NCBI RefSeq assembly: GCF_000332115.1 | Contig: NC_020156.1 | Coordinates: 3,287,501 to 3,351,500 of the forward strand | Source: Nonlabens dokdonensis DSW-6 | Lineage (GTDB): Bacteria > Bacteroidota > Bacteroidia > Flavobacteriales > Flavobacteriaceae | DNA length: 64,000 nucleotides | Reading direction: 5' to 3' | In this document: positions 22,370-31,092 of the stretch, piece by piece | Layout of the letters: each line of letters starts with the position of its first letter | Position numbering within the stretch: the first letter of the stretch is position 1 | Translations under genes and position numbers: made by a program | The notes under the pieces: model-generated | Database searches by the model: none | Seen by the model: the letters and a program-made list of their open reading frames with translations, nothing else | Told to the model about the DNA's origin: nothing

Positions 22370-23401
22370 ATGAACATTTGTTTTATTATGTATCCTTGGG
22401 AAGAAATTAAAGCAGAAGAGGATTCTACGCTTACTTTGATCCATGAATGCATCAAACGTGGGCATAAAGTGGCCATCGCTACTCCTGCAAATCTTACTAT
22501 AAGAAACAGTATTGCATATGCATTTTCTAAAGTAATCAAGAAAATGGATAAAGTACCTGCTCAAATCAAGTCCTTTTACAAACAAGCCGAACTGAAAGAG
22601 AAGATGTTGCCACTCGCTGGTTTTGATGTGATTATGATGAGAGCAAATCCGCCATTGGATCCTATTGCTTTAAACTTTTTGGATTCCGTAAAAGATGATG
22701 TGTTTATCGTAAATGATATTGAAGGGTTGAGAGAAGCCAATAATAAGTTATATACCGCTTGTTTTGACGATCCTAACAATGAGATTATTCCAGCAACTCA
22801 TGTTTCTAAGAATAAGCAATATCTTAAAAGTGTGATCAAGGAAAATCCAAGAGATAAAATGATCATGAAACCATTAAATGGATATGGTGGAAGTGGCGTT
22901 ATTATGATAGAAAAAAGTGCGATGGGAAATGTGAATTCCTTACTTGATTTCTATATCGATAATAAAGACGGTACTACAAACTATGTGATTCTACAAGATT
23001 ATATAGAAGGAGCAGATCAAGGCGACTCCCGTATATTATTGCTTAATGGGGAACCTATAGGAGCTGTGAGACGCGTTCCTGGCGATGAAGATCATAGATC
23101 TAATATTAGTGCCGGAGGAACTTTCCAACGTCACCAGCTTACTAAAGCAGAGAAAAATCTTTGTAAAAAAATAGGTCCTAAGCTAATTAAGGATGGGCTT
23201 TACTTTGTTGGCATAGACGTCATTAATGGTATGCTGGTAGAAGTGAATGTAATGTCTCCTGGTGGAATCGTTCAAATCAACAAAGCCTCTAAAGTAAAAA
23301 TACAGGCAAAAATTATAGACTATTTTGAAGATGTAGTTCAAGACCGTATTAAGTCTTTAGAACGTCGCAATAAACTTAAAAGCACCATTGTAGATGCTTA
23401 A
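22370..23401 (+). CDS. ATP-grasp ligase, glutathione-synthetase-like
   Basis: 343 residues. The N-terminal domain has a GshB-like pre-ATP-grasp fold (MNICFIMYPWEEI, then DVIMMRANPP). The ATP-grasp core shows MIMKPLNGYGGSGV for nucleotide binding, LQDYIEGADQGDSRI, and the Mg-binding VEVNVMSPGGI near the C-terminus. The order and spacing match glutathione synthetase/RimK-type carboxylate-amine ligases, but the partner amine and acid are unknown. It opens a three-gene overlapping cassette with an N-formylglutamate-amidohydrolase-like gene and a DUF1704 gene, which suggests a gamma-glutamyl- or peptide-type small molecule or modification. Confidence 0.85.
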   Translation: MNICFIMYPWEEIKAEEDSTLTLIHECIKRGHKVAIATPANLTIRNSIAYAFSKVIKKMDKVPAQIKSFYKQAELKEKMLPLAGFDVIMMRANPPLDPIALNFLDSVKDDVFIVNDIEGLREANNKLYTACFDDPNNEIIPATHVSKNKQYLKSVIKENPRDKMIMKPLNGYGGSGVIMIEKSAMGNVNSLLDFYIDNKDGTTNYVILQDYIEGADQGDSRILLLNGEPIGAVRRVPGDEDHRSNISAGGTFQRHQLTKAEKNLCKKIGPKLIKDGLYFVGIDVINGMLVEVNVMSPGGIVQINKASKVKIQAKIIDYFEDVVQDRIKSLERRNKLKSTIVDA

Positions 23402-24224
23402 ACTCTCTATTTTACAGATCATAGAGCGCATAGAAAAAGAAGAGACTTTTCATGCGGTCGTTGAGGATTATTCCTTTTCTATTAAAATTGATGATTATGT
23501 TCCCTATGCATGCGCAGCAGTGCATGATGGGCATCATTTTTCCAAAGACTTATGGGATAATTGCTTGCATACAGAACATGATCGCTGGTATGAAGAAGAT
23601 CCTTGTACCGGTCAGATGATTTCTGGTTTACCTATTACTTTAATAGCACATGACAGCAGGTTTGAATATGATCTTAATCGTCATCCAGATACTGCTATTT
23701 ATGATACCGCATGGGGGAAAAAGTTATGGAAGAAGCCTCTGACAGAAAAACAAAAAGATAGAGCTTTAACAAAGCACGATAATTTTTATAAGGTAGTACT
23801 TACATTATCGGTGAAGTTAGAAGAGCTTTTTGGAAGTTGTGTTTTTTATGACATGCACTCTTACAACTGGAAGCGATGGGATCGCAAGGTTCCCGTTTTT
23901 AATTTAGGTACTTCAAATGTTGATCAAGAAAAATATAGTGTCGCTATTAAACAGTGGCAAGAAATTCTTGACGACATGCCGCTACCTTTTGAAGAGAAAG
24001 TTACTTGTACGATAAATGATGTTTTTCAAGGGAATGGGTTCTTTTTAAAGTATGTTACTTCAAATACAGTAAACACTCTAGTTTTAGCTACCGAAATCTC
24101 CAAGATCTACTGTGATGAGTTAACTGGACAAATATTTCCAGAAGTAGTTCATTCTGTGCAAGATTTATTTCGTTATTATATTAAAGCACACGCACATCGT
24201 TTTTATGACCGACATGATGTCTAA
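23394..24224 (+). CDS. N-formylglutamate amidohydrolase family protein
   Basis: 276 residues. It has the metal-dependent amidohydrolase pattern of the FGase family: HDGHHFSKDLW (about 41-51), HDSRFEYDLNRH (about 83-94) and YDMHSYNWKRW (about 152-162), which carry the His/Glu/Asp residues expected at the active site. The classical enzyme removes formate from N-formylglutamate in histidine breakdown, but no hut genes are near. The 8-bp overlap with the ATP-grasp gene and the tie to DUF1704 point to a different, cassette-specific substrate. Confidence 0.8.
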   Translation: MLKLSILQIIERIEKEETFHAVVEDYSFSIKIDDYVPYACAAVHDGHHFSKDLWDNCLHTEHDRWYEEDPCTGQMISGLPITLIAHDSRFEYDLNRHPDTAIYDTAWGKKLWKKPLTEKQKDRALTKHDNFYKVVLTLSVKLEELFGSCVFYDMHSYNWKRWDRKVPVFNLGTSNVDQEKYSVAIKQWQEILDDMPLPFEEKVTCTINDVFQGNGFFLKYVTSNTVNTLVLATEISKIYCDELTGQIFPEVVHSVQDLFRYYIKAHAHRFYDRHDV

Positions 24225-25392
24225 CAATACCACTGATACAGACCTTTCCCAATATCAAGACGTTCTTGATATTGATGCAAATATTCACAGAATTGTAAAA
24301 AATCTAGAGCTTCTAGCTTACATCAATCCTTTGAACATTGCCCAAGAGCGAAAGGAATTTTTTAAGTCAAAATACACTCACGAGCCAAAATTCAAGTATC
24401 GTAAACTTAAATTTAAGCCCTATAAATTGCATCGCATGTTTTTTAGCCAGCGGCTAGAGCGCATTGAAGATGAAGATATTAGATCGTTGTATAAGGATAT
24501 TATTTATACATACAGTGGTTTAGTACAATGCATTGAGACCATTAGCGAGTCTAATAGTAAGTTCTATTTTAACAGCTTGCGCTTTTTTGGAACACCTACA
24601 GAAAAGATGGTAGAAAATGCAAAGTTTATCTTGCATTTTCAAAATGAAGAGCTGGTAGAAAAAAAGCATGATGCTATTTTGAGCACAGAAGAAGCCGAAG
24701 CTTTTTTCATCAACTATCGAGAGTTGTACGATTTTGATTTTACCATAAAGACCAGCAGCGCTATGAGTGCAGCTGCGATGGTTTCTAATAAAGACAGGTC
24801 GCTTATTTTAAAAAAGGGACATTTATATTCACAACATGAGCTCAATGTACTTGCTCATCACGAAATAGGAGTCCATCTGGTTACTACTTTTAATGCTATA
24901 GATCAACCTTTAAAAATTTTTAGTAATGGTTTTCCTAACAATGTAGAAACGCAAGAAGGACTTGCTGTAATGTCAGAATATATGAGCGGTAACCTTACTT
25001 TAAATCGCTTAAAAGAACTGGCTTACCGTGTGATTGCTACAGATTCTCTTATCAAGGGATATTCTTTTGCAGATACATTTGACCTGATTCACAGTCAGTA
25101 TAAACTTGATCGTGAGCGAGCTTTTAATATAACCTTACGTACCCATCGTGGAGGTGGTTTTACTAAGGACGCGTTGTACCTTTCTGGACTTAAAAAGATT
25201 TACGATCTTCATAAATCAAATACAAATTTTGATAATATGCTCTTAGGTAAGTGTTCATTAGAATACAATCCGATCATAGAAAAAATGAAAGGTTTGAATT
25301 TAGTTCTTCCTGCAGCTCATCACGCTAAAAGTTTTGATGTTCAGCTTAATAATAATCCGACTATAGATTTTATCTTAAATAATTTAAAATAG
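24205..25392 (+). CDS. DUF1704/QEGLA-motif metallopeptidase-like protein (TIGR02421 family)
   Basis: 395 residues. The family, annotated as flavohemoglobin expression-modulating QEGLA motif protein, is related to the tubulin carboxypeptidase MATCAP. Visible residues fit a zincin: His219-Glu220-x-x-x-His224 in HHEIGVH, the QEGLA motif at 250-254 supplying a further Glu, and a late THRGGGFTKDALY segment. It overlaps the upstream gene by 20 bp, and internal ATGs at 24214 and 24217 are alternatives. A carboxypeptidase acting on the ligase product is plausible but is inference. Confidence 0.85.
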   Translation: MTDMMSNNTTDTDLSQYQDVLDIDANIHRIVKNLELLAYINPLNIAQERKEFFKSKYTHEPKFKYRKLKFKPYKLHRMFFSQRLERIEDEDIRSLYKDIIYTYSGLVQCIETISESNSKFYFNSLRFFGTPTEKMVENAKFILHFQNEELVEKKHDAILSTEEAEAFFINYRELYDFDFTIKTSSAMSAAAMVSNKDRSLILKKGHLYSQHELNVLAHHEIGVHLVTTFNAIDQPLKIFSNGFPNNVETQEGLAVMSEYMSGNLTLNRLKELAYRVIATDSLIKGYSFADTFDLIHSQYKLDRERAFNITLRTHRGGGFTKDALYLSGLKKIYDLHKSNTNFDNMLLGKCSLEYNPIIEKMKGLNLVLPAAHHAKSFDVQLNNNPTIDFILNNLK

Positions 25393-25868: not shown

Positions 25869-27701
25869 CTAATTCTTATAAATTTTCTGTTTAGTAATTT
25901 GACCGCTGGAGCTCAAACCTTTTATAACGTATAATCCATTTGATAGTTGTGATATATCTATCTTATTTACGCCTTCCTTTAAACTTCCTGTTTTCAATAG
26001 TTTCCCACTTAAGTCATATAAGGAATAGGTTGCATTTTGCTTTGTGCTTACAAATAGTTCTTCTAAAGCTGGATTAGGATAAAGTATCCACATATCTTCA
26101 TGCTGTAAATTCTCTGTAGACAGCGTGTTACTTACAACTGTAGAATAAGTATTAGTAGTGATCGGTAAGTTGTAATCAAAATAAATATTTGCAGTTGCTT
26201 CAAAATCATCACCTAAAACAGCTGTACTTTTTGACTTGATTTTGTAGAAAATCCATCCGTGGCTATTGGGCTCATTTGTAGTGCTATCTTCTAAATTAAT
26301 ATTGTTGAATGTGTAAGTAAGTTCATTCCCATTGTTTAAGGATGTGGTGTAGGAATGAGACGCAGTTAACGGTTGAAATGTGCTCCAGTCTAATTCTTGA
26401 TCTAATGTGGTTTTTACAATAATATTCACTGCCGAGGCTGTTCCTGTATTTTGGAAACGGATTCTATATGTCAAATCATCTCCTACTTGAGCTGGTGTTA
26501 TTTGATCACCTTCAATACACAAAACATCATTGGGGTCATAAGCATTAACTACTGGCTGATCAAAATCAATATTATTATTTGAAGGATTTACGTCTGTAAG
26601 AGGTGTGATATTACCAGTAAAATTTAAAGTCTCACCAGAATTAACTGTAGGTGGTGTAAAAATATTGAATGTTAATGTGATGTTCCTTATCTCTAGTGGA
26701 GTCAAATTACTATAATTCCAGGTGATGGAATTGCTGCTAATGTTTGAAGGTGTTATTGAAGAAGATAGGTATGTCATCTTAGTTGCATCAAAATTTAATA
26801 CAATCGATTCTGATCCTGTGGTTATGTTTCCGTTGTTTGTATAAATAAGATCATAATCTACATCAAAGCCAGGTCTTGCAAGCGTTTGACTTATAAGTTG
26901 AGTGCTTACATCTACTCCGTTTATATTACTCTCAAGGCAAAAGTCATTGTTCAAGTAAGAATTTGTGGTAGCATCTATCGTTAAGTTAATTGAGTTAGGA
27001 GTAGAAATCAGATTACCGCTATTTACTGGCTCAATTGTGAAGTTGCCAGTAATATTTGGCAATAAGAAAGTGTAATTGCCATTTATAGTAGATGTGAATG
27101 AAGTAGAATTATCTCCCAAGTTTGTAATTTTCATAGGGTAATTATTGAGCATATTAGGATTTGAACAACTTGCTGCATTAATTGAACCACTAACTATTTT
27201 TGGATTATGAATTCCTAAACTTGCACCATCGAGAAAAAACTGGCAACTAGGAATTGTAATTCTAAGCTGGTAGTTACCTGCTTGAATATTTGAAAAAACT
27301 AAGAGACTATTTTTAGGATTGGGCCAGCCTGTACAAGTTCCTGCTACAGTATTTATGGTAGTAGCACTAATCGCAGCATTGTTAGAGTCTATTAATTCAA
27401 AAATCGCTGGGGTTCCTGTATAAATAATACCATATTCTAATTCTAACTGGTAAAAGCCATCAGCTCCTATACCAAATATAGGAGAGGTTACTGTTGCGTT
27501 TGGGTTCCCTAAATTATCCACAAAAATAGATTGACAACCACCATTAAACCACGAGTTAGAAACTGTACTTGGTAACACAGTCCAGTCGGCAACATCTGCA
27601 GCGGTTGTAAATGAACTAGATGGAATAGGTACGTTCTGACTTTGAGAGATTTGAGCGGAAAGTAAACTGATAATACCGATAATAAGTAAAGCTTTTTTCA
27701 T
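25869..27701 (-). CDS. Large secreted protein with T9SS C-terminal sorting domain
   Basis: 610 residues: a signal peptide (ISLLSAQISQSQ), an N-terminal beta-sandwich, then repeated DUF11/conserved-repeat-like segments (NNGNITTGSESIVLNF, YRIRFQNTGTASA) typical of surface filaments. A C-terminal type IX sorting domain follows (ILYPNPALEELFV, YDLSGKLLKTG, LSNGLYVIKG, KQKIYKN). The DPNDVLCIEGDQI block with the repeat before the CTD is a recurrent flavobacterial architecture. It is predicted to be exported by T9SS and attached to the cell surface, perhaps for adhesion or gliding. A TACCTTCG box with a TTG 16 nt upstream lies before it at 27737-27763. Confidence 0.88.
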   Translation of the reverse strand: MKKALLIIGIISLLSAQISQSQNVPIPSSSFTTAADVADWTVLPSTVSNSWFNGGCQSIFVDNLGNPNATVTSPIFGIGADGFYQLELEYGIIYTGTPAIFELIDSNNAAISATTINTVAGTCTGWPNPKNSLLVFSNIQAGNYQLRITIPSCQFFLDGASLGIHNPKIVSGSINAASCSNPNMLNNYPMKITNLGDNSTSFTSTINGNYTFLLPNITGNFTIEPVNSGNLISTPNSINLTIDATTNSYLNNDFCLESNINGVDVSTQLISQTLARPGFDVDYDLIYTNNGNITTGSESIVLNFDATKMTYLSSSITPSNISSNSITWNYSNLTPLEIRNITLTFNIFTPPTVNSGETLNFTGNITPLTDVNPSNNNIDFDQPVVNAYDPNDVLCIEGDQITPAQVGDDLTYRIRFQNTGTASAVNIIVKTTLDQELDWSTFQPLTASHSYTTSLNNGNELTYTFNNINLEDSTTNEPNSHGWIFYKIKSKSTAVLGDDFEATANIYFDYNLPITTNTYSTVVSNTLSTENLQHEDMWILYPNPALEELFVSTKQNATYSLYDLSGKLLKTGSLKEGVNKIDISQLSNGLYVIKGLSSSGQITKQKIYKN

Positions 27702-28302: not shown

Positions 28303-28482
28303 ATGAGTAGTGAAATGAAAATGAACAAAGCTGAGATTTTATCCCAATTAAAAAAAGAAGGGGTAACAAGTTTAGATGAGTTTGCAGATATGCTTATCAA
28401 GAAAACACACAAGGATGGTGATGAAAACAAACCTATTGTTATGGCTGCAATAGTTTACCAACACGGTTTCGTATCGCACTAG
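28303..28482 (+). CDS. Putative RiPP-type precursor peptide (59 aa)
   Basis: 59 codons from the ATG at 28303 to TAG at 28482, shorter than common gene-calling limits. Residues ~7-37 are a charged amphipathic helix (KMNKAEILSQLKKEG, then SLDEFADMLIKKTHK), like leader peptides of RiPP precursors. An acidic hinge DGDE (38-41) comes next. The C-terminal 18 residues begin NKPIV and end with the hydrophobic stretch AAIVYQHGFVSH, a plausible core. There is no signal peptide or double-glycine motif. A hairpin terminator lies 8 nt downstream and three coupled genes follow. Calling it a modified-peptide precursor is inference from architecture; it could also be a small regulator. Confidence 0.7.
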   Translation: MSSEMKMNKAEILSQLKKEGVTSLDEFADMLIKKTHKDGDENKPIVMAAIVYQHGFVSH

Positions 28483-28490
28483 ATTTATCA

Positions 28491-28530
28491 AACAGGTTGT
28501 AGCTTTTAAGGTACAGCCTGTTTTATTTTA
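28491..28530 (+). terminator. Attenuating terminator between peptide and downstream genes
   Basis: 10-bp stem AACAGGTTGT (28491-28500) / ACAGCCTGTT (28513-28522) with one G-U pair and a 12-nt loop, followed by the T-rich run TTTTATTTTA. It sits between the 59-aa gene and the first large gene, the usual place for a partial terminator that keeps precursor mRNA in excess over modification enzymes. Confidence 0.75.
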
Positions 28531-28547
28531 ATACAAATACTCATTTT

Positions 28548-29498
28548 ATGACTGCTTTACTGAATGCAAAAGATCAAAAAAAAATGCTAGACGGCCTATT
28601 AATGTGGTTAAATTCTAACATGTTACATTTTTGCACTCCTAATGAAAGGGAATTTATAGGAATTCATCCAGAAGAAATAGAGCCAGAGATTACTAGAAAA
28701 GCATTCACAGAGTTGGGACTGGCAATTAGGTTTGCACAAAATTCTAAGAAGGTATGCCACCATCCTGTTTTTATAGAACTAAAGAACAAATGGATCAAAA
28801 ATATTACGGATAGCTCCTTTTTCTTTGATACTAAAAGAAGATTAAGGTTATTTCCTCATAGAACTCTAGCATACGCAACATTAAGATCTTTAGGAATCGA
28901 GAACAAGCAAGTTAAACATGACCTTGAAACGGTAATGAGTAGAAATTATATGGATAGAGTAGAACGTAGTGCTTGGGATAAACTGGATATGAAATATTAT
29001 ACTGAAATTGCTCAATTACCCAACGATTTTCCTAGTTACCGAAGATTATTTCAGGATTCCATTTTAGAAAATTTGCCTAGTCATTCTTATGCACAAAATT
29101 TAGATTTTTATGGCTTAACACATTTGATATTTCATCTTTCTGATTTCTCTAAAAATGACATGAAAATAATCGCTGGAAAAAAGTTTGAAGAAATCCAAGA
29201 GTACATAGATGCGACTCTTTGTTTATGTCTCATAGAGCAAGATTGGGATCTGGTGCAAGAGCTTTTAATCAATCAATACTGTATGAGAAAAACTTTTACA
29301 GAATTAGATGTATACTCAGCAAGTGCTATTAAAGATATACAGCAACCACAAGGTTTTATACCAGGAAGAAACTGGGTTAAGAATCAACATAAGGATGTGA
29401 ATTTTGATAAAAACCAACACAGTTTTGAAGATGTTTATCACCCAACCATATTAGGTTTATTTTTATTAATCCTTGAATTAAAAGATACTGATGAATAA
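28548..29498 (+). CDS. All-helical protein of the peptide operon, unknown family (DUF6895-like?)
   Basis: 316 residues, no signal peptide or membrane helix. Predicted almost wholly helical. Conserved-looking clusters are THLIFHLSDF (His192, His196, Asp199), DWDLVQELL (Asp232, Asp234, Glu238), QGFIPGRNWV (about 266-275) and a late YHPTILG (His298). Their spacing suggests an alpha-toroid or a metal- or ligand-binding helical fold. The pattern recalls uncharacterised families such as DUF6895, but I cannot confirm that. It shares helical style and an N-terminal LWLN/MWLN motif with the next gene, with which it overlaps by 8 bp (ATGAATAA). Probable role: modification or binding of the upstream peptide. 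Confidence 0.75.
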   Translation: MTALLNAKDQKKMLDGLLMWLNSNMLHFCTPNEREFIGIHPEEIEPEITRKAFTELGLAIRFAQNSKKVCHHPVFIELKNKWIKNITDSSFFFDTKRRLRLFPHRTLAYATLRSLGIENKQVKHDLETVMSRNYMDRVERSAWDKLDMKYYTEIAQLPNDFPSYRRLFQDSILENLPSHSYAQNLDFYGLTHLIFHLSDFSKNDMKIIAGKKFEEIQEYIDATLCLCLIEQDWDLVQELLINQYCMRKTFTELDVYSASAIKDIQQPQGFIPGRNWVKNQHKDVNFDKNQHSFEDVYHPTILGLFLLILELKDTDE

Positions 29499-30348
29499 CA
29501 CATATAAACAGTCTTTACGAAACACATACCTATGGTTAAACAGCTTGTCAACCGAACGAATCAACGAACAAGTAATTGAACTTTTAGCTTTGATAAACGT
29601 TTGTAAGCTAGACAGTAGTGTTTTACAAGAAGAATTTGACTCATTAGGCACAAAATTTCTTAATCAAGTAGGTACTATAGATTATGTTAAGCAGGACTTA
29701 TTTCATGCCTTACTAGCTTTAGATTTTGTTGAACGTTTAGGAAACCCTACACAAAAAGCAGATGCAATAGCGTACAGATCTATTTTAAAAGAATTATGGA
29801 GTGAAGGACTTTATGCTGAAAAGAAAACTCTTTTAGATAGTATTTTTTGTGATAACAAAGAAAGTTCTGATACTGTAAACATGACCATAAGATTAGATCG
29901 ATTCAACTTAGATATTGATAAGGAAATTTTAAAATTTATTGAGCAAGTAGAAACGCAAAGTAATTATGGAAAGAAAACCATAATAACTGATGAGTTAAGC
30001 ATTCTAAAAATGGAAGCAATGGCAACTAGAGCTCAAAGGTCAAATGATATTATTACTGCAGCGAGATGTTTAAGGTCAAGAACATATTTATCAAACCATG
30101 ATTCATTACTTATGAAATCTGGCATGAAATTTTTGCTTTCTCAACAATGTTATGACGGTAGTTTTGGTGACTACGAAGCAGATATGCTTAAGATAAAAGA
30201 CTCGGAATCTCGAGATAAATCGACTCTTAAAATTAAATTGATAGTTTCTATTCAAATTATATGGACCGTTATGGAGTTTAACGGTCATAGTTTGTTTTCT
30301 TCTCTTCAACGTGATAACCACTACTCAATTGCAACAAATCGATACTAA
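29491..30348 (+). CDS. All-helical protein with terpene-cyclase-like QQ..DGSFG motif
   Basis: 285 residues, cytosolic, helical. Residues 218-226 read QQCYDGSFG, very like the Q-x-x-DGSFG strand-turn (QW) motif of squalene/oxidosqualene cyclases and prenyltransferase beta-subunits, in the same setting (helix FLL before, helix after). Only one clear copy is visible. No DxDD or other cyclase acid motif is seen, so it is probably a helical-toroid binding or processing protein. Its N-terminal LWLNSL parallels MWLNSN of the preceding protein, suggesting divergent paralogues. 8-bp overlap upstream and a 3-bp gap downstream make this a tight operon. Confidence 0.72.
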   Translation: MNNTYKQSLRNTYLWLNSLSTERINEQVIELLALINVCKLDSSVLQEEFDSLGTKFLNQVGTIDYVKQDLFHALLALDFVERLGNPTQKADAIAYRSILKELWSEGLYAEKKTLLDSIFCDNKESSDTVNMTIRLDRFNLDIDKEILKFIEQVETQSNYGKKTIITDELSILKMEAMATRAQRSNDIITAARCLRSRTYLSNHDSLLMKSGMKFLLSQQCYDGSFGDYEADMLKIKDSESRDKSTLKIKLIVSIQIIWTVMEFNGHSLFSSLQRDNHYSIATNRY

Positions 30349-30351
30349 ATT

Positions 30352-31092
30352 ATGCTTACTAAAGAACAAATAGAATCATTTAAAGAAGATGGAGTTTTAA
30401 TTCTCCGTAATTTTTTTCCAAAACAAGAGATGAACACATGGAGAAATGAAGCCCATGATTATCATAAAAATCCTTTAACAAGTGAAGATTGGAAAAACGC
30501 AATAATGAATTATTCTGGGAATACTTTTAATTTTAAAAATGATGCTCATCCAGCTTTTCATAATAAAATGAAGGATTTATATCAATGTTTTAATGACCAA
30601 ATAGAATGGAATGGTGAAAATGAACTAGTTGCTAGATGGCCAGAAATTGATGCAGAATGGCTGGGAGCGAGAACACCACATCTAGATTTTCCAGTTTATG
30701 ATAGAATAAGAACACTTGCAAATAGCGTTTTTTACTTAAATGATGTAACTATAAAAGGGGCGCCTTTAATGTACTGGAAAAAGAGTCACAAAGTAGCTTG
30801 GGAATATTTTAAAAAACACCCTTCACATTACATGGCTCAAGGAGAGTTAAGTCAAGGACAAATATTTGAGATCCTTACAGATGCTATGGATTCAGAACCT
30901 ATACCTTTTTACGGTAAAGCTGGAGATTTAATGATATGGCATTCTTTGATACTGCATTCACCATCTGTAAATTTATCTCATGATGCAAGGCTAGCAGTAA
31001 TAGGAAGATGGGGAGCAACGATTAAAGAAGATGAATTTAGATTTGATTTTTCTAAAGATATTTGGGACAAATGGAATCTAAATTCCATTTAA
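30352..31092 (+). CDS. Phytanoyl-CoA dioxygenase-family 2OG-Fe(II) oxygenase
   Basis: 246 residues. A PhyH-type non-haem iron, 2-oxoglutarate-dependent hydroxylase: HxD iron ligands at His110-Asp112 (PHLDFP), distal His202 (LILHSPS), and Arg213 in RLAVIGRW to bind 2-oxoglutarate. The segment NSVFYLNDVTIKGAPLMYW is the typical beta-strand with gating GAP, and GDLMIWH precedes the distal His. The family hydroxylates lipids, amino acids and peptide natural products. As the last gene of the operon it is the most likely tailoring enzyme for the 59-aa peptide, hydroxylating a side chain. No transporter or peptidase gene follows. Confidence 0.88.
   Translation: MLTKEQIESFKEDGVLILRNFFPKQEMNTWRNEAHDYHKNPLTSEDWKNAIMNYSGNTFNFKNDAHPAFHNKMKDLYQCFNDQIEWNGENELVARWPEIDAEWLGARTPHLDFPVYDRIRTLANSVFYLNDVTIKGAPLMYWKKSHKVAWEYFKKHPSHYMAQGELSQGQIFEILTDAMDSEPIPFYGKAGDLMIWHSLILHSPSVNLSHDARLAVIGRWGATIKEDEFRFDFSKDIWDKWNLNSI

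What the first reader, a model, noticed from the sequence alone, without database searches (positions are those of the whole stretch)
28303..31092. Compact peptide-modification-like operon: 59-aa peptide, two helical proteins, PhyH-type dioxygenase
Four genes on one strand, the last three coupled by 8-bp overlap and a 3-bp gap, are led by a very short gene whose product has a charged helical N-terminus, an acidic hinge and a hydrophobic C-terminus. The enzymes are not any standard RiPP enzyme (no LanB/LanM, YcaO, radical SAM, ATP-grasp). Instead there are two all-helical proteins, one with a QQCYDGSFG terpene-cyclase-like motif, and a 2OG-Fe(II) oxygenase with a complete HxD...H...R site. This would be a new class of hydroxylated peptide. 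Sequence shows the operon and the motifs; the peptide-product idea is inference.
Basis: partly seen in the sequence, partly recalled or inferred. Interest (0 to 1): 0.88.

Follow-up and report, generated by a model that had tools for sequence, protein, structure and literature searches.

The report
Peptide-tailoring operon with DUF6895 enzyme
A marine bacterium carries a four-gene cassette, also found in a distant soft-rot bacterium, that looks like a small factory for chemically altering one short peptide; the peptide is almost unchanged between species, which suggests a fixed product rather than a fast-changing antibiotic.

Summary
The 316-aa protein is DUF6895 (PF21836, E 1.4e-50), a family whose only literature trace here is a paper title naming a 'DUF6895 family epimerase' for a lasso peptide. 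The whole cassette (peptide, DUF6895, partner, PhyH) recurs in Nonlabens dokdonensis and Pectobacterium zantedeschiae. The smaller unit, peptide + DUF6895 + partner (sometimes fused), occurs in several phyla: 30 of 30 distinct loci with a recognisable partner have a short peptide gene just upstream on the same strand. A strong hairpin lies between peptide and enzymes in 9 of 27 folded gaps, the window's included. DUF6895 is predicted as an alpha/alpha toroid (pLDDT 90) with nine invariant polar residues in 27 of 27 aligned sequences. Best reading: a RiPP-like cassette in which DUF6895 with its partner epimerises the C-terminal segment and PhyH hydroxylates it. The chemistry is inferred; PhyH is limited to this sub-lineage (3 of 67 distinct loci).

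The parts
28303..28482 (+). Putative precursor peptide gene, 59 aa: helical-looking N-terminal 'leader' with EIL..LKKEGVTSLDEFA, acidic hinge KDGDENKP, hydrophobic C-terminus IVMAAIVYQHGFVSH
   Evidence: strong purifying selection; homologue in Pectobacterium 56% identical; peptide-profile hit upstream of DUF6895 in 30 of 30 distinct loci with a partner
28490..28523 (+). Terminator/attenuator-like hairpin (12-bp main stem, then a U-rich tract) between peptide and enzyme genes
   Evidence: z -4.9 and -6.3; one stem pair is G-U here and A-U in L009; a strong hairpin (z -2.9 or lower) in 9 of 27 folded gaps
28548..29498 (+). DUF6895 protein (316 aa), predicted alpha/alpha toroid; proposed peptide epimerase subunit
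29491..30348 (+). Partner protein (285 aa), no family; QW-like motif at residues 214-225; homologous to the C-terminal half of fused actinobacterial proteins, which is predicted as a second alpha/alpha toroid
   Evidence: the window partner itself was not modelled
30352..31092 (+). PhyH-type Fe(II)/2-oxoglutarate dioxygenase (246 aa), H110-x-D112, H202, R213
   Evidence: PF05721 E 3.1e-13; active-site residues conserved in L009 and L023

Best explanation
The cassette is a RiPP-like (ribosomally made, post-translationally modified peptide) locus. The 59-aa peptide is made in excess because a leaky terminator hairpin follows its gene. Its N-terminus is bound by the DUF6895/partner pair of alpha/alpha toroids. 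This pair inverts one or more residues of the hydrophobic C-terminal segment (MAAIVYQHGFVSH) from L to D by a two-base mechanism using invariant acid/His residues, and the PhyH oxygenase then hydroxylates a side chain there. Host proteases and exporters, not encoded in the cassette, release the product. Because the segment is nearly fixed, the product is probably a signal, siderophore-like or cofactor-like molecule rather than a diversifying toxin. Shown: gene order, family membership, co-occurrence of the peptide gene, constraint, predicted hairpin, predicted folds, intact oxygenase site. Inferred: excess, binding, epimerisation, hydroxylation, role.
For: PF21836 match; title of Shi et al. 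[quoted passage not shown] Same four genes in the same order in Nonlabens dokdonensis and Pectobacterium zantedeschiae, the peptide being the most conserved (97% and 56% identity, against 83/37, 62/26 and 78/43% for DUF6895, partner and PhyH). Peptide gene just upstream in 30 of 30 distinct loci with a partner. No further gene shared by more than 3 of the 30 neighbourhoods compared (crude gene calling). Hairpin after the peptide gene. In a second DUF6895 lineage the next gene is a PF00144 serine hydrolase (3 of 3 proteins tested), a family with known D-residue-specific peptidases (recalled). Nine invariant polar residues, among them two His; MslH, an unrelated peptide epimerase, places two His across the C-alpha (passages of PMC10406935).
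Against: No mass-spectrometric or structural evidence. The epimerase paper could not be read and concerns a lasso peptide, a different setting. No protease, exporter or recognisable recognition domain is in the cassette. The putative core is not variable. Flavobacterial DUF6895-like lipoproteins (L012-L014) have no peptide-profile hit below E 0.39 in their loci, so the domain need not act on a cassette peptide. With the Bacteroidota/Pectobacterium rows left out, the peptide profile does not recover that group (L025 0.18, L023 5.4, window 15, L024 not found). No hairpin of note in 14 of the 27 gaps (z above -2), and that of L023 has no U-tract. PhyH is absent from the other type I loci within the flanks fetched.
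Confidence: 0.55

Rival explanations
1. The small protein is not a substrate but a permanent third subunit or chaperone of a DUF6895/partner enzyme that acts on another peptide, protein or small molecule; PhyH works on that other substrate.
For: Peptide under strong purifying selection over its whole length with a lineage-fixed C-terminal motif; no protease or exporter shared by the neighbourhoods; in Dictyobacter the trio sits among gas-vesicle genes.
Against: A hairpin after the peptide gene in part of the loci fits a product needed in excess; Lederbergia L046 has three peptide genes for one enzyme pair; a DUF6895 protein is reported as a peptide epimerase (title only); the peptides differ in length and tail between lineages.
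Confidence: 0.25
2. DUF6895/partner catalyse some other peptide chemistry (cyclisation, dehydration, C-terminal modification) rather than epimerisation, with PhyH hydroxylating.
Against: The only functional label for the family found here is epimerase; no LanC-type conserved cysteine set (one Cys column above 60%).
Confidence: 0.15
3. A small-molecule (terpenoid-like) tailoring operon; the peptide is incidental.
Against: No DxDD motif in the window protein, and in only 1 of 27 aligned sequences; no prenyl-chain gene recognised by eye among the ORFs; peptide gene in 30 of 30 loci with a partner.
Confidence: 0.05

Closest known systems
DUF6895 (PF21836) lasso-peptide epimerase, Shi et al., ACS Catal. 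2026, doi 10.1021/acscatal.5c08590 (title only, in the reference list of PMC13352647)
   Same: Same Pfam family by name; peptide-modification setting
   Different: No lasso cyclase beside the window: the Asn-synthase matches of this genome lie at 0.03 and 0.65 Mb, the window at 3.29-3.35 Mb of 3.91 Mb, that is at least about 0.6 Mb away if the contig is circular. Here there is a partner protein, a PhyH gene and a short hydrophobic C-terminus
Polytheonamide-type proteusins (PoyD epimerase + PoyI Fe(II)/2OG hydroxylase; PoyI passages in PMC10373908, PoyD recalled)
   Same: Works like: an epimerase plus a 2OG hydroxylase on one peptide
   Different: Their epimerase is radical SAM and the leader nitrile-hydratase-like (both recalled); none of these here
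MslH (MS-271 lasso peptide epimerase; passages of PMC10406935)
   Same: Non-radical peptide epimerase proposed to use two bases
   Different: Calcineurin-like, metal-dependent fold; the window protein is predicted as an alpha/alpha toroid
Fe(II)/2OG RiPP hydroxylases CanE and DurX (passages of PMC10373908)
   Same: 2OG oxygenase acting on a precursor peptide
   Different: Those belong to lasso and lanthipeptide pathways with their own cyclases; sequence kinship to the window PhyH was not tested
Type II terpene cyclases and GH105-type toroids
   Same: Overall alpha/alpha toroid fold
   Different: About 10% identity, DxDD motif absent; fold likeness alone

Membership tests
DUF6895 (PF21836) | Profile match over the curated cut-off across the domain | tested here: met
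   172.7 bits against 23.8, residues 15-306
RiPP biosynthetic locus | Short precursor gene beside the modifying enzyme | tested here: met
   30 of 30 distinct loci with DUF6895 and partner; 14 of these 30 helped build the profile
RiPP biosynthetic locus | Conserved leader with variable core | tested here: not met
   C-terminal segment is at least as conserved as the leader
RiPP biosynthetic locus | Dedicated peptidase or exporter in the locus | tested here: not met
   none in the cassette and none shared by the neighbourhoods; a MATCAP-type predicted peptidase lies about 3 kb upstream in another operon, its link to the cassette untested
RiPP biosynthetic locus | Product peptide carries the modification | not testable with these tools
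   needs mass spectrometry
Lasso peptide cluster | Asparagine-synthetase-like cyclase close by | tested here: not met
   three PF00733 match rows in the genome, at about 31 kb and 648-649 kb; window at 3.29-3.35 Mb
Type II terpene cyclase | DxDD acid motif | tested here: not met
   absent in the window protein, present in 1 of 27 aligned sequences
Type II terpene cyclase | alpha/alpha toroid fold | tested here: met
PhyH 2OG dioxygenase (PF05721) | HxD...H...R metal/2OG site | tested here: met
   profile E 3.1e-13; site conserved in 3 of 3 copies

The most novel reading that the evidence does not exclude
A widespread RiPP-like class, not described in the papers searched here, defined by peptide + DUF6895 + a second toroid partner. 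It has a lineage-fixed C-terminal motif of the shape (aliphatic)2-x-x-polar-x-aromatic-aliphatic-[VS], so each lineage makes one invariant D-residue-containing molecule (signal, cofactor or metallophore). The PhyH cassette of Nonlabens and Pectobacterium is its hydroxylated branch, spread by horizontal transfer.
Probability: 0.35. Interest if true: 0.85.

Novelty: new variant of a known kind. Interest (0 to 1): 0.68.

Why it matters
If right, it widens a barely characterised epimerase family from one reported lasso setting to a set of precursor-plus-enzyme units found in genomes of Bacteroidota, Pseudomonadota, Actinomycetota, Chloroflexota, Bacillota and Cyanobacteria (record titles; phyla assigned from recall). 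It would offer small enzymes for putting D-residues and hydroxyl groups into peptides. It also poses a testable question: why would a modified peptide be kept nearly invariant?

Tried and rejected
Rejected: lasso peptide cluster (no cyclase nearby); terpene cyclase (no DxDD); known phage-defence protein (no PADLOC match at E 0.01 for the 4 proteins); chance small ORF (third-position substitution pattern).

Led nowhere: the first genome-contig scan, with the partner protein, found no relative; PDB sequence searches found nothing for DUF6895 (E up to 1) or PhyH (E up to 0.01); no Pfam or NCBIfam family above its cut-off for the peptides tried. Literature: PF21836, no paper; the conserved peptide strings, no paper; RiPP + Bacteroidota + genome mining + epimerase, 6 papers listed, none read, no title pointing to this unit. 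Profile comparison of DUF6895 with the partner was weak (34% probability, 73 columns); the lipoproteins L012-L014 match both profiles (DUF6895 7e-21 to 4e-16, partner 2.6e-6 to 7e-4), a hint that the two toroids are related. Alignment A8 mixed fused and single proteins badly and was not used further.

Limits: the profile of 15 peptides scores its own training rows high by construction; leave-out results: L058 6.6e-5, L026 1.4e-4, L046 9e-5 to 1.4e-4, L019 1.6e-3, L065 0.09, L045 0.68, L044 4, window/L023 left out together 0.38 and 1.8e-3, whole Bacteroidota/Pectobacterium group 0.18 to 15 or not found. 36 of 67 distinct loci give no hit with this profile; they belong to other DUF6895 lineages. 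In seven of these a different short peptide was seen by eye (L010, L016, L018, L064, L070, L071, L077); the rest were not examined fully. The scan used two short patterns, so its 58 loci (of 93 pattern matches) are no census. DUF6895 is rare near the window: 2 of 59 relatives, 6 of 397 family genomes, three of them the lipoprotein type, 1 of 395 phylum genomes, the own one. A PhyH match at E 1e-20 occurs in 1 of 395 class genomes, the own one. Four gaps (L055, L067, L073, L076) were bounded by an estimated start and may include coding sequence.

Full report
Observation. All four ORFs, the 8-bp overlap and the 3-bp gap are as stated. The window lies in a 3.91-Mb single-contig genome whose cassette has its nearest relative in Nonlabens dokdonensis (DUF6895 83% identical). 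The peptide ORF is a true gene: 13 of 15 substitutions against that relative fall at third positions, dN 0.014, dS 0.58. Its last 16 codons have three synonymous and no amino-acid changes.

Related loci. A collection scan gave 58 loci. The partner profile hits 32 rows, 30 distinct. In 30 of 30 a peptide-profile hit lies just upstream of DUF6895 on the same strand; the gap to the called DUF6895 start is at most 214 nt, and negative where the longest start was called. The profile hits 35 segments in 33 rows at E < 1e-3 among 12,104 six-frame segments; those not upstream of a DUF6895-partner pair are one downstream copy in L046 and one upstream of DUF6895 in L058, where no partner was recognised. 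Fourteen of the 30 were training rows. Leave-out tests recover the Bacillaceae, L026 and L058 peptides at E 1e-4 to 2e-3, but not the window group from the other phyla, so the link between those groups rests on position and on the shared enzymes. The record titles include Flavobacteriaceae, Pectobacterium, a deltaproteobacterial bin, Streptomyces, Geodermatophilus, Dictyobacter, Lederbergia and a cyanobacterial bin; plasmids of Pseudalkalibacillus and Kitasatospora also carry the unit.

The exact four-gene cassette occurs in Pectobacterium zantedeschiae (L023): peptide 56%, DUF6895 37%, partner 26%, PhyH 43% identical to the window. In the 69 rows the PhyH profile hits only the window, the N. 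dokdonensis copy (L009/L022) and L023 strongly; the one other row is L027 at E 0.07. In the genus of the window 2 of 23 genomes have DUF6895. In the 18 other genus genomes whose lptD flank was looked at, the slot behind lptD holds other genes (three genomes not looked at). The cassette is therefore accessory, and horizontal transfer between the two phyla is the simplest reading (inference; no tree was made).

Organisation. Between the peptide and DUF6895 lies a 12-bp hairpin followed by a U-rich tract (28490-28523; MFE -18.4 kcal/mol, z -4.9). In the N. dokdonensis copy a G-U pair is A-U. Of 32 peptide-to-next-gene gaps, 27 were long enough to fold; 9 have z of -2.9 or lower (window, L009, L019, L023, L024, L027, L045, L050, L065), 4 lie between -2 and -2.9, and 14 show little, most of them Streptomyces. 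The L023 hairpin is long (z -5.6) but has no U-tract. A hairpin after the first gene is usual where a precursor is needed in excess of its enzymes (recalled).

The peptide does not diversify. GYVLAW[ED][RK]YVLVV is kept in 18 of 18 printed sequences of the fused lineage, followed by a variable tail; the window and Pectobacterium share a YxHGFVS C-terminus. Apart from the peptide, DUF6895 and the partner, no gene is shared by more than 3 of the 30 neighbourhoods compared with a crude gene caller (this set has L058 and lacks the window itself, represented by L009).

Mechanism. The literature library holds one paper with the word DUF6895, and only in its reference list: Shi et al., ACS Catal. 2026, on a DUF6895 family epimerase in lasso peptide modification (the paper itself is not held). 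I therefore propose peptide epimerisation by DUF6895 with its partner, followed by PhyH hydroxylation, comparable in logic to PoyD plus PoyI in polytheonamides (PoyI passages in PMC10373908; PoyD recalled). In a second DUF6895 lineage the next gene is a PF00144 serine hydrolase in 3 of 3 tested, a family with D-specific peptidases (recalled), which fits D-residues. Against this stand the missing protease and exporter in the cassette, the fixed core, the DUF6895-like lipoproteins without a peptide-profile hit, the loci without a hairpin, and the absence of any biochemical test. The main rival is that the small protein is a stable subunit.

Verdict. A real, conserved, accessory cassette that very probably handles its own small peptide. 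The family of the main enzyme has one reported function in a different setting, so this is a new variant rather than a categorically new system.

Noticed in passing
L026 and L027 (Dictyobacter): The peptide-DUF6895-partner trio sits among gas-vesicle genes (GvpL/GvpF PF06386 E about 1e-55; a GvpO-like match below cut-off), and a larger upstream protein (L026 3618-5162, L027 4196-4978) ends in a segment resembling the small peptide's C-terminus (by eye; weak profile match in L026).
   Followed up: partly
L028, L030 (Streptomyces): Two DUF6895 genes close together; in L030 with a glycosyltransferase-like gene (below cut-off), an MFS transporter and a short upstream ORF ending ESGCVINNSKAL.
   Followed up: partly
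L012 9568-10590, L013 5440-6624, L014 255-1301: DUF6895-like proteins that look like lipoproteins in Flavobacteriaceae, without a peptide-profile hit below E 0.39; they match both the DUF6895 and, weakly, the partner profile.
   Followed up: partly
L046 5145-5384, 5440-5670, 7319-7495 (Lederbergia): Three related peptide genes around one DUF6895/partner pair.
   Followed up: partly
window 22370-25392: Glutathione-synthetase-like ATP-grasp (PF02955), N-formylglutamate amidohydrolase (PF05013) and a MATCAP-type predicted peptidase (PF08014) in one tight operon, about 3 kb upstream of the cassette.
   Followed up: no
window 25869-27701: Protein with DUF7619 and a type IX sorting domain beside the cassette; 74% identical copy in the other cassette-bearing Nonlabens genome (G010), at most 45% in the other rows listed; 22 matches in the own genome.
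   Followed up: no
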